Shown: positions 51,661-53,760 of the stretch, one piece after another
Layout of the letters: each line of letters opens with the position of its first letter
Numbering within the stretch: the first letter of the stretch is position 1
Assembly (NCBI GenBank): GCA_019217005.1
Contig: JAHBNG010000091.1
Span: forward strand, 1 to 59,764
DNA: 59,764 nucleotides
From: Chloroflexi bacterium TSY
Lineage (GTDB): Bacteria > Chloroflexota > Anaerolineae > Caldilineales > Caldilineaceae
Direction of reading: 5' to 3'
Made by a program: the position numbers and the translations under genes
Notes under the pieces: model-generated
What the model was told of the DNA's origin: nothing
The model's database searches: none
Seen by the model: only the letters and a program-made list of their open reading frames with translations

Positions 51661-53760
51661 CTAAGCAAACGCCCGCATCGACTCTCCTTTCTCCACCGCC
51701 TCTTCAATCGCTCCCACCATGTAAAAGGCACTTTCAGGCAAATGATCATGTCTGCCATCGAGAATTTCGCCGCAGCCTCTGACTGTCTCAGCAATGTTAA
51801 CGTGGCGTCCTGGGGTGCTCGTAAACTGTTCCGCCATGAACATGGGCTGGGTCAGAAAACGCTGGAGTTTGCGGGCCCGAGCCACAGTGAGCTTGTCCTC
51901 CTCACTCAACTCTTCAACACCCAAAATCGTGATCACATCCGTCAAATCTTTGTATCGCTGAAGCGTGCTCTGGACAGCACGCGCAACTCGATAGTGTTCT
52001 TCGCCCACGATATTTGGATCGAGAATGCGGCTGGACGAGTTCAGTGCATCCATTGCGGGGAAGAGTGCCAGGTCAAAGAGGGAACGCTCCAGCGTAATCG
52101 TCGCATCCAAGTGGGCAAAAGTTGTTGCTGGTGCCGGATCCGTGTAATCATCGGCGGGAACAAAGACTGCCTGTACCGATGTAATCGATCCAGTGTTTGT
52201 CGATGTGATCCGTTCCTGAAGCTCGCCCAAATCGGTGCCGAGCGTTGGCGCATAGCCAACCGCGCTGGGCAAACGACCCAGCAATGAGGATACCTCCGAT
52301 CCCGCTTGAACAAATCGGAAGATGTTGTCGATAAAGAGGAGAACATCATTGCCCTGATCACGAAAATACTCGGCCATGGTCACACCGGTCAATCCAACCC
52401 GCAGACGGGCACCTGGCGGCTCATTCATCTGACCAAAGACCATGACGGAAGAATCAATCACACCTGAATCCGTCATCTCGTGAATCAAGTCATTCCCTTC
52501 ACGACTACGCTCACCCACACCGGCAAAGACTGAATATCCGTGATGAAATTCTGCCACATTGTGGATCAACTCCTGAATAATAATGGTCTTGCCGACTCCA
52601 GCGCCACCAAAGACCCCAATCTTACCGCCCCGGGTGAAGGGAGCAATGAGATCGATGATTTTGATGCCGGTCTCAAACATCTCCGGTTTGGTGCTTTGCT
52701 CATCAAACCGTGGTGCAGTGCGATGGATGGGATAACGCAGCTCAGTATCGACCTCTCCTTTGCCGTCAATCACCTCACCGGTCACATTAAAGATTCTGCC
52801 CAAGGTCGCCGCTCCAACCGGCACCATAATGGGGCGTCCATTTGACGTGGCTTTCATACCGCGACGTAAACCGTCTGTGCTGCCCATTGCAACGGCCCGG
52901 ACGACCTGATTGCCTGCCTGCTGCTCAACCTCAAATATCTCAACACGTCCATCATCCAACTCGACCGTGACTGAATCAAATAGCTCTGGCACCTGCCCGT
53001 CAGGAAACGTGAATTCAACCACTGGACCCACCACAGTGCGGACAGCGCCAATCATTTCCTTTGACATATAGACCTCCTTGTCTATCATGAGTCGTTCGCG
53101 CAGAAAACTCTTGAAGAAGACATACGCTTTCTTCCAGCGATGAGCCTGCTCAGGCATGAATTCCTGAATCAGCTCCTTCAGATTCTGGCGCGCATTGTAA
53201 AGACGTTTTTTCACAGCATTGAGTGAAATTTGGAGGATTGACGCAATCTCATTTTGGGAATAACCATCAATGTAAAAGAGCGACGTAACCAATTGCTGGT
53301 TACGTGGCAGCAAGCTCACTGCTGTATGGACATCAATCTGGAACATAGCCTCGTCCAGTAACGCGTCGGAAGCGGCATGTAGCTTTGGTGTCCAAATGCC
53401 ATCCGTCGCTTGACCAACCGTTGAATCCATCATCGTTGTTGGACCACCACTGATCAAGCGAGCATCTTGGAGATCGTCGAACGAAATTGTTGTACGGTTG
53501 TCTCTGCGAGTGTGTCGGTCTGCATGCTTGACAACGATGCGTCGGAACCAGCCCGGAAAAGCGGCTGGATCGTGCAGCTGTGTCAATAGCCGGTATGCAT
53601 CCAAGAACGATTCCTGCACCACATCTTGGGCCAATGCATAGTCACCCACTATTGCATATGCATTCGTCAACGCCATCCCTTGGAAACGCTGAACGATCTC
53701 CTCAAACGCACCATCATCACCTTGCTGTGCTGCAATCACCATTGATTTCAGTTCGCTCAT
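51661..53760 (-). CDS. ECF sigma factor fused in frame to a complete F1-ATPase beta-subunit-like protein
   Basis: A 699-residue fusion. Residues 1-231 form an ECF sigma factor: region 2 (GAFEEIVQRFQGMALTNAYA to FPGWFRRIVVKHADRH), a 45-residue linker and region 4 (LLPRNQQLVTSLFYIDGYSQ and EIASILQISLNAVKKRL). Residues 232-699 form a full AtpD-like chain: N-terminal barrel (IGAVRTVVGPVVEF), Walker A GGAGVGKT, catalytic Glu in GVGERSREGND, Walker B VLLFIDN, a DELSEED-like EELSEED, and the usual C-terminal helices (AFYMVGAIEEAVEKG). No stop separates the halves. No other ATP synthase gene is present. I choose ATG 53760, matching the start of the paralogue, with GGGGAA upstream. An internal start at 53067 could also give a free AtpD-like protein. 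How the halves work together is unknown. Confidence 0.9.
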   Translation of the reverse strand: MSELKSMVIAAQQGDDGAFEEIVQRFQGMALTNAYAIVGDYALAQDVVQESFLDAYRLLTQLHDPAAFPGWFRRIVVKHADRHTRRDNRTTISFDDLQDARLISGGPTTMMDSTVGQATDGIWTPKLHAASDALLDEAMFQIDVHTAVSLLPRNQQLVTSLFYIDGYSQNEIASILQISLNAVKKRLYNARQNLKELIQEFMPEQAHRWKKAYVFFKSFLRERLMIDKEVYMSKEMIGAVRTVVGPVVEFTFPDGQVPELFDSVTVELDDGRVEIFEVEQQAGNQVVRAVAMGSTDGLRRGMKATSNGRPIMVPVGAATLGRIFNVTGEVIDGKGEVDTELRYPIHRTAPRFDEQSTKPEMFETGIKIIDLIAPFTRGGKIGVFGGAGVGKTIIIQELIHNVAEFHHGYSVFAGVGERSREGNDLIHEMTDSGVIDSSVMVFGQMNEPPGARLRVGLTGVTMAEYFRDQGNDVLLFIDNIFRFVQAGSEVSSLLGRLPSAVGYAPTLGTDLGELQERITSTNTGSITSVQAVFVPADDYTDPAPATTFAHLDATITLERSLFDLALFPAMDALNSSSRILDPNIVGEEHYRVARAVQSTLQRYKDLTDVITILGVEELSEEDKLTVARARKLQRFLTQPMFMAEQFTSTPGRHVNIAETVRGCGEILDGRHDHLPESAFYMVGAIEEAVEKGESMRAFA
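53065..53080 (-). promoter_or_regulatory. Strong internal ribosome binding site and start at the sigma/AtpD junction
   Basis: On the minus strand AAGGAGGTCTATATG places a near-perfect Shine-Dalgarno sequence five bases before ATG 53067. That ATG begins MSKEMIGAVRTVVGP, the natural start of an AtpD protein. It is in frame with the sigma factor, so the locus can make a fusion, a free AtpD-like protein, or both. Confidence 0.75.

What the first reader, a model, noticed from the sequence alone, without database searches (positions are those of the whole stretch)
51661..53760. ECF sigma factor fused in frame to a full, catalytically intact AtpD-like F1-ATPase beta chain
Directly visible: one 699-codon frame holds sigma regions 2 and 4 and then a complete AtpD-like protein with Walker A, catalytic Glu, Walker B and DELSEED-like motifs. 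No other ATP synthase gene is present. I know of no described system coupling a sigma factor to an F1 beta subunit. Inference: the ATPase part could sense ATP/ADP, form a ring or bind an F1 component, and thereby control the sigma factor.
Basis: partly seen in the sequence, partly recalled or inferred. Interest (0 to 1): 0.95.

Follow-up and report, generated by a model that had tools for sequence, protein, structure and literature searches.

The report
Sigma factor fused to ATP-synthase beta
In a bacterium that likely belongs to the Chloroflexota, one open reading frame joins a gene-switching sigma factor to a complete ATP-synthase beta subunit with all its catalytic motifs; relatives carry worn-out versions of the same pairing, so the beta part likely works as the sigma factor's sensor and would tie gene expression to the state of the cell's energy machine.

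Summary
The intact beta groups with Caldilineaceae AtpD, not with the pseudo-betas, and keeps a perfect internal ribosome-binding site and start, so free AtpD may also be made. No second intact sigma-AtpD fusion was found (lists capped). Most likely mechanism (inferred): the beta module gates the sigma factor in cis. Chance read-through into a second atpD is the main rival.

The parts
51661..53760 (-). sigma-AtpD open reading frame, 699 aa
53494..53694 (-). ECF sigma region 2 (residues 23-89)
   Evidence: Pfam PF04542
53179..53331 (-). ECF sigma region 4 (residues 144-194)
   Evidence: Pfam PF08281
53068..53172 (-). linker, residues 197-231; WKKAYVFFKSFL resembles the helix that opens the ankyrin part in relatives (consensus FAxxVxFFxAL): likely remnant
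   Evidence: comparison by eye with the consensus of A1; much of 209-231 has pLDDT under 50
53072..53079 (-). internal Shine-Dalgarno AAGGAGGT
   Evidence: the only full 8-nt match before any of 265 internal in-frame ATGs of 31 ORFs chosen
51661..53067 (-). complete AtpD module; from its own ATG (residue 232) a 468-aa F1 beta subunit
52585..52608 (-). Walker A GGAGVGKT (residues 385-392)
52495..52521 (-). catalytic loop GVGERSREG, Glu417 (residues 414-422)
52324..52341 (-). Walker B LLFIDN (residues 474-479)
53845..53872 (-). predicted ECF promoter of the sigma-AtpD gene, GTATCCT-N13-TGGGTCTT
   Evidence: two mismatches to the consensus; like motif before 10 other sigma-clade genes
53828..53839 (.). 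palindrome TGAAGGCCTTCA just downstream of the predicted promoter
   Evidence: two places in the window, both before these sigma genes
53924..56215 (-). tandem paralogue B: sigma-ankyrin-pseudo-beta gene, interrupted (sigma region 2 half from 56215 to about 56009; region 4, ankyrin and pseudo-beta in the open frame 55666-53924)
55791..56005 (.). MITE-like insert in paralogue B: 215 bp, terminal inverted repeats CAGTAGATCCAAATTT, flanking direct repeat AGGCT
56302..56329 (-). predicted ECF promoter of paralogue B, GTATCCT-N13-TGGGACTT
   Evidence: one mismatch
56285..56296 (.). palindrome TGAAGGCCTTCA before paralogue B

Best explanation
This is an ECF sigma factor, predicted to drive its own promoter, whose ankyrin and pseudo-beta tail has likely been replaced by a complete F1 beta subunit (AtpD) with intact catalytic motifs that likely serves as its regulatory domain. 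Predicted cycle: the sigma part recruits RNA polymerase to GTATCCT-N13-TGGGTCTT before its own gene, a positive loop. The beta part sets the loop: seated in an F1 ring, with alpha neighbours and nucleotide, it would hold the sigma part away from RNA polymerase; left free, when F1 assembly or the nucleotide state fails, it would let the sigma part act. The internal ribosome-binding site would also yield free AtpD, which would compete for the same F1 seat. Shown here: the frame, the catalytic motifs, the sigma part's clade, the shared promoter-like motif, the recurrent sigma/beta pairing fused and unfused, and the internal start site. Inferred: the tail replacement, cis regulation, F1 docking, the signal, autoregulation and dual translation.
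For: Recurrence: 34 of 120 listed sigma hits including the window's and 7 of 120 listed from P0028 (P0028 is in both) carry F1-beta-like modules. Unfused neighbours with overlapping stop/start (ATGA in L107, TAATG in L102) suggest a shared task. The sigma part sits inside the sigma-ankyrin-pseudobeta clade (34 rows, SH-aLRT 97) while the beta part sits inside Caldilineaceae-type AtpD (27 rows, 95), so the modules have different histories. The catalytic set is kept although the nearest AtpD is only 79% identical, which suggests lasting constraint. Promoter-like motif before 11 distinct sigma-clade genes; in nine genomes 9 of 14 sites at one mismatch or less are the sigma gene's own, one per genome, the other 5 fewer than the 13 of the reversed-pattern control. 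Other ECF sigma factors are gated by C-terminal extensions (PMC8999054, section 3.5 part 1 of 2). Recalled, no call: N-terminal tags on beta are tolerated in F1, so a sigma part there need not block assembly.
Against: No second intact sigma-AtpD fusion found (listings capped). The perfect internal ribosome-binding site, and tandem stops in another frame just before it, fit a fused frame that arose by accident; the chance of an open in-frame junction is about 0.07-0.19. The sigma gene's own ATG has no Shine-Dalgarno match (nor have 17 of the other 30 ORFs). The sigma part has a long branch (0.77 against a median of 0.15, and the tool calls the place of such rows unsure) and 5 of 51 near-invariant positions changed (leave-one-out median 0, maximum 6). 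Relatives' pseudo-betas lack nucleotide-site residues, so a shared mechanism cannot rest on ATP. The model leaves the domains' relative placing unsettled (pTM 0.66). No target beyond itself was found.
Confidence: 0.4

Rival explanations
1. Accidental read-through: a truncated sigma gene (ankyrin and pseudo-beta tail lost) lies directly upstream of a second atpD copy that brought its own ribosome-binding site. AtpD is made mainly from its own ATG, and the covalent fusion is incidental or in transition. The sigma promoter may simply make AtpD a sigma-controlled output.
For: Perfect AAGGAGGT 4 nt before the native-looking AtpD start, the strongest among the 31 ORF starts and 265 internal ATGs scored, while the sigma ATG has none; atpD genes in L160 and L158 carry the same AAGGAGGT; 468 aa is within the usual AtpD length; in-frame joining by chance about 0.07-0.19; fast-evolving sigma part; no other intact fusion found.
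Against: Sigma regions 2 and 4 are intact, with 46 of 51 near-invariant positions kept, and the promoter-like motif is kept. Fused or overlapping sigma/beta pairs recur elsewhere, so the adjacency is unlikely to be meaningless.
Confidence: 0.27
2. Direct nucleotide switch: the intact beta module binds ATP or ADP on its own and its open/closed change turns the sigma part on or off, without F1.
For: All Walker and catalytic residues checked are kept in the window copy; the Walker-A Lys and catalytic Glu are also kept in P0028, L107 and L102 beta.
Against: Of 40 listed proteins with a beta module only the window's has an intact Walker A; among 36 pseudo-beta rows none keeps both Lys and Thr/Ser. 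Recalled: the F1 site is completed by alpha.
Confidence: 0.2
3. Artefact: a frameshift or chimeric join in the assembly fuses two separate genes of one operon.
For: No reads available; tandem stops in a neighbouring frame about 20 nt before the AtpD start; the protein cluster is listed on one contig only.
Against: GC is much the same across the join (0.49 sigma, 0.47 linker, 0.53 AtpD, window 0.51); the in-frame linker still resembles the family's next helix (by eye); sigma and beta lie side by side in other genomes too.
Confidence: 0.08

Closest known systems
[quoted passage not shown]
   Same: ECF sigma regions 2 and 4 followed by a long C-terminal module in one chain; extensions reported or proposed to gate activity by conformation or protein contact (PMC8999054, section 3.5 part 1 of 2 and the tables)
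   Different: No F1-ATPase-derived extension is mentioned in what I read (the extensions of many listed groups are not described there); here the extension is a whole enzyme subunit with intact catalytic motifs
Sigma-ankyrin-pseudobeta proteins of Chloroflexota (unnamed family seen here, e.g. P0038, paralogue B)
   Same: Same sigma clade and promoter-like motif; F1-beta-derived C-terminus
   Different: They carry ankyrin repeats and a beta module without Walker A; the window copy has no ankyrin match and a full AtpD that groups elsewhere
Housekeeping F1 beta subunit AtpD (TIGR01039)
   Same: Full length, 76-79% identical to the 119 AtpD listed, catalytic residues kept
   Different: Fused behind a sigma factor, no atp operon noticed in the window; 12 changes at 267 near-invariant columns (leave-one-out median 0, but its three nearest rows P0189, P0131, P0209 have 13, 12 and 10)
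PADLOC ankyrin models PDC-M72A and MzaA (MZA anti-phage sigma factor)
   Same: Paralogue B matches PDC-M72A (64 bits) and MzaA (17.5 bits) in PADLOC, and NCBIfam MzaA at 38.6 bits against a cut-off of 800
   Different: These matches lie on the ankyrin residues only; the sigma-AtpD protein itself has no PADLOC match at E 0.001

Membership tests
ECF sigma factor | sigma regions 2 and 4 | tested here: met
   PF04542 31.0 bits (cut-off 24.0), PF08281 40.6 bits (cut-off 25.7); helical domains predicted there
ECF sigma factor | directs transcription from an ECF promoter | not testable with these tools
   a conserved promoter-like motif lies upstream; activity not tested
ECF with regulatory C-terminal extension | long extension after region 4 in the same chain | tested here: met
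   505 residues follow residue 194
ECF with regulatory C-terminal extension | extension changes sigma activity | not testable with these tools
   needs experiment
F1 beta subunit (AtpD) | equivalog score | tested here: met
   TIGR01039 745.1 bits, cut-off 462.85, positions 2-462 of 462
F1 beta subunit (AtpD) | Walker A, catalytic Glu, Walker B | tested here: met
F1 beta subunit (AtpD) | assembles with alpha and gamma | not testable with these tools
   no alpha or gamma gene noticed in the window; host genome not held
sigma-ankyrin-pseudobeta family | sigma part in the clade | tested here: met
   34-row clade, SH-aLRT 97, but the window row is a long branch
sigma-ankyrin-pseudobeta family | ankyrin repeats and degenerate beta of common descent | tested here: not met
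   no Ank match in the window protein; beta falls within AtpD and matches the pseudo-beta residue at 0 of 70 diagnostic columns; one shared Cys at residue 663 is an exception
MZA defence sigma factor MzaA | MzaA profile match | tested here: not met
   no PADLOC match for the 699-aa protein at E 0.001

The most novel reading that the evidence does not exclude
The sigma factor is itself a working subunit of ATP synthase: sigma-AtpD takes a beta seat in F1, so the enzyme acts as its anti-sigma factor and releases an autocatalytic sigma loop when F1 is lost, unassembled or starved of nucleotide. The cell would read the integrity of its ATP synthase directly as transcription.
Probability: 0.15. Interest if true: 0.95.

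Novelty: new variant of a known kind. Interest (0 to 1): 0.72.

Why it matters
If the beta module gates the sigma factor, bacteria have a one-protein link between the ATP synthase and gene expression, built repeatedly from F1-beta parts: fused with ankyrin repeats, fused without them, and as overlapping genes. The window copy is the only one found with an intact catalytic site, so it is the natural test piece for whether ATP or F1 docking is the signal. The wider clade (related sigma parts with PheS-like, SecA-like, nucleotidyltransferase and other tails) looks like a general way of wiring housekeeping machines to autoregulated sigma factors.

Tried and rejected
Idea: the window's intact AtpD is the ancestor of the degenerate betas. 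Tested at 70 columns where AtpD is at least 90% conserved and the pseudo-betas favour another residue: the window matches the pseudo-beta residue at 0, its three nearest rows in the tree at 1, 1 and 2, other listed AtpD at up to 3, outgroup AtpD at up to 5. Not supported. A Cys at residue 663, shared by these four and 27 of 36 pseudo-betas but by none of 116 other AtpD, stays unexplained. Long branches leave a deep link open (warns of this).

Idea: other intact sigma-AtpD fusions exist. In 400 phylum genomes 37 had an AtpD match at E 1e-203 or better; two had long open frames (773 and 784 aa), but the upstream reading is not a sigma factor by eye. Less similar AtpD would have been missed at that threshold. 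In 46 genomes of G697's family no match of 50% identity or more lay in an open frame above 528 aa, apart from the sigma-part match in G750 (710 aa, a sigma-ankyrin-pseudobeta gene). A search with P0131 at E 1e-225 matched 0 of 400 genomes; the threshold was too strict to mean anything. By the sigma part, 4 of 400 phylum genomes matched at E 1e-25.

Idea: the motif marks a wider regulon. At one mismatch or less there are 14 sites in nine genomes: 9 are the sigma genes' own, 5 others, against 13 for the reversed-pattern control. No regulon beyond self was detected; weaker targets cannot be excluded. The motif was read by eye from seven upstream regions, so those sites match by construction; G001, G302, G499 and G697 came out of the scan. 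That scan fixed the gap at 13; gaps of 11-16 were tried in the window only. Letter shuffles of all loci gave 3.7 sites a pass at two mismatches or less. The motif was missing before five other Chloroflexota sigma genes fetched (in L103, L105, L106, L188, L189) and in L002-L072, apart from one site in L069 that is not before its sigma gene.

Idea: anti-phage system; no PADLOC match for the fusion. Literature: searches aimed at a sigma/F1-beta or sigma/ankyrin fusion listed none; I saw listings and the starts of abstracts. PMC8103513: passages only (no occurrence of ankyrin, ATPase or Chloroflexi in its main text). The ECF re-classification paper was not held. Absence from print is claimed only for these searches of an open-licence library.

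Limits and rows dropped: one search lists 120 of 235 hits, 120 of 645 and 120 of 8000, so unlisted hits were not seen. Alignment A1 used 29 of 33 listed relatives with a beta module. The beta tree used 26 of 119 AtpD (under 90% identical to each other), 15 AtpD from genomes and 22 beta-like rows; the sigma tree used 12 of 21 PheS-type and 22 of 44 ankyrin-only rows. In one search only two candidates per genome were scored, so 5 of 396 is a lower bound. Start codons were picked by script and some GTG starts were missed.

Full report
WHAT IS THERE. The finding's coordinates hold one open frame on the minus strand, from ATG 53760 to stop 51661, 699 codons; the plus-strand frame there is closed. 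It matches ECF sigma regions 2 and 4, then all three parts of an F-type ATPase alpha/beta chain, and passes the AtpD equivalog model at 745 bits (cut-off 463). Walker A, catalytic Glu loop and Walker B are intact; 'intact' here means by motif, activity is untested. Of 267 columns at least 99% conserved in 119 AtpD, 12 are changed; leave-one-out values for those AtpD have a median of 0 and a maximum of 13, and the window's three nearest rows have 10 to 13. AlphaFold2 gives confident sigma domains and a confident beta chain joined by poorly placed linkers (mean pLDDT 83, pTM 0.66; under 50 in 88-94, 97-131, 209-212, 214-220, 226-231 and 484-509). Foldseek's best PDB match is F1 beta 5ik2_E, TM-score 0.92 by target length.

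A TANDEM PARALOGUE. Directly upstream on the same strand lies a second sigma gene with ankyrin repeats and a beta-like end without Walker A (open frame 53924-55666), with its sigma region 2 half at about 56009-56215. The halves are parted by a 215-bp element with 16-bp terminal inverted repeats and a 5-bp flanking direct repeat; the same inverted-repeat ends recur at 42774-43151. This gene is thus broken, while the sigma-AtpD frame next to it is open.

THE FAMILY. Among the 120 listed relatives of the sigma part (of 235 hits), 34 including the window's carry an F1-beta-like stretch. I sorted the 120 by the listed Pfam domains: 32 sigma-ankyrin-beta, 1 sigma-beta without ankyrin (P0028), the window's, 44 sigma-ankyrin, 21 with a PheS core domain, 2 with SecA domains, 19 others (groups printed). 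A second search from P0028 lists 7 of 120 with PF00006 (of 645 hits). Over both lists, 40 of 217 distinct proteins have a beta-like stretch and only the window's holds a Walker A motif. In 36 pseudo-beta rows none keeps both the Walker Lys and the following Thr/Ser; 4 keep the catalytic Glu. Pseudo-beta majority residues agree with AtpD somewhat more in the C-terminal domain (53 of 113 columns) than in the nucleotide-binding domain (71 of 185). The model of P0038 gives a folded beta-like end that Foldseek places with F1 beta chains (4q4l, TM-score 0.62 by target length). In genomes: 4 of 400 of the phylum matched by the sigma part at E 1e-25, and 5 of 396 of one class held a sigma-ankyrin-pseudobeta match at E 1e-95, a lower bound.

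UNFUSED PAIRS. In G117 a sigma-ankyrin gene is followed by a beta-like gene whose ATG overlaps its stop (ATGA); in G330 by one with a TAATG overlap (L107 and L102; PF00006 in both beta-like proteins). Fused in some genomes and coupled in others is a usual sign of parts that work together (inference).

ORIGINS. The window's sigma part falls within the sigma-ankyrin-pseudobeta clade (34 rows, SH-aLRT 97) but on a long branch (0.77; median 0.15), whose exact place the tool calls unsure; 46 of 51 near-invariant sigma positions are kept. Its beta part falls within Caldilineaceae-type AtpD (27 rows, SH-aLRT 95), nearest to P0131, P0189 and P0209 (98); the highest identity is 79%. The pseudo-betas fall outside. 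So the sigma part and the intact AtpD have different histories, and the linker still resembles the helix that opens the ankyrin part in relatives (by eye, against the consensus). I infer that a sigma-ankyrin-pseudobeta gene lost its tail and gained a whole AtpD. The host's likely placement in the Chloroflexota rests on these similarities alone; its genome is not held.

AN INTERNAL START. Just before AtpD residue 232 the DNA reads AAGGAGGT-CTAT-ATG. Of 265 internal in-frame ATGs in 31 ORFs chosen have a Shine-Dalgarno match of 6 nt or more and only this one has all 8; the sigma gene's own ATG has none, like 18 of the 31 ORF starts in all. From there the product is 468 aa, a usual AtpD length. 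Of 27 relatives' atpD starts picked by script, 7 have a match of 6 nt or more, and L160 and L158 carry the same AAGGAGGT. Another frame has tandem stops just before this site, and an open in-frame join would arise by chance in about 7 to 19% of cases. Free AtpD may therefore be made as well as, or instead of, the fusion; this is the chief caveat.

THE PROMOTER-LIKE MOTIF. Upstream of the window's two genes and of relatives I read GTAACCT-N13-TGGGACTT by eye from seven regions. In a scan with the gap fixed at 13 and up to two mismatches it lies before 11 distinct sigma-clade genes (window A and B, G001, G117, G302, G330, G499, G697, G701, G706, G750) and at one unrelated place in the loci then held; letter shuffles gave 3.7 sites a pass. 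It was absent before five other Chloroflexota clade genes fetched. In nine genomes there are 14 sites at one mismatch or less: one before each genome's own sigma gene and 5 others, against 13 for the reversed pattern. This is what autoregulation predicts, and no further target was detected. A palindrome GAAGGCCTTC follows the motif in A, B and the genes in L184 and L186 and L182.

MECHANISM. The best-supported reading is a self-driving sigma factor whose beta-derived tail decides whether it acts. Because most relatives likely cannot bind nucleotide in the ordinary way, the shared principle is more likely protein contact, for example with F1 partners, than ATP hydrolysis; the window copy could use both. 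All of this is inferred; no activity was tested.

NOVELTY. [quoted passage not shown]) counts at least 26 groups with N- or C-terminal extensions, many of them not described there. I saw no F1-derived extension in those parts, nor in the listings of five searches. I therefore call it a new variant of a known kind; a whole enzyme subunit with intact catalytic motifs as the extension is the surprising part.

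Noticed in passing
P0022 and 20 other listed hits; P0111, P0115; L104 3853-5541; L105 4861-6759: Related sigma parts carry other enzyme-like tails: a PheS core domain (21 of 120 listed), SecA domains (2 of 120), a nucleotidyltransferase domain (L104), and tails in L105 and L106 that look GNAT/SCP2-like by eye (SCP2_2 in L105 only below its cut-off). P0022 and P0111 score below the NCBIfam cut-offs for PheS and SecA.
   Followed up: partly
42774-43151 and 55791-56005: Two MITE-like elements with the same 16-bp terminal inverted repeats (378 and 215 bp); one interrupts the sigma paralogue.
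   Followed up: partly
48036-49763 and 49657-51276, plus strand: Two overlapping frames that look like parts of one BNR/sortilin-like protein (by eye); perhaps a frameshifted gene.
   Followed up: no
33472-39156, plus strand: A 1894-aa ORF that by eye starts like a 4-hydroxyphenylacetate 3-hydroxylase and continues as a nonribosomal peptide synthetase module with methyltransferase and thioesterase-like parts; no family search was run.
   Followed up: no
window residue 663 (AtpD part): Cys shared by the window AtpD, P0131, P0189, P0209 and 27 of 36 pseudo-betas but by none of 116 other AtpD.
   Followed up: partly
G752 C71, G746 C374, G751 C355: Divergent AtpD copies, 51-55% identical to the window's; in G752 and G746 beside a closer one, in G751 the only one listed.
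   Followed up: no
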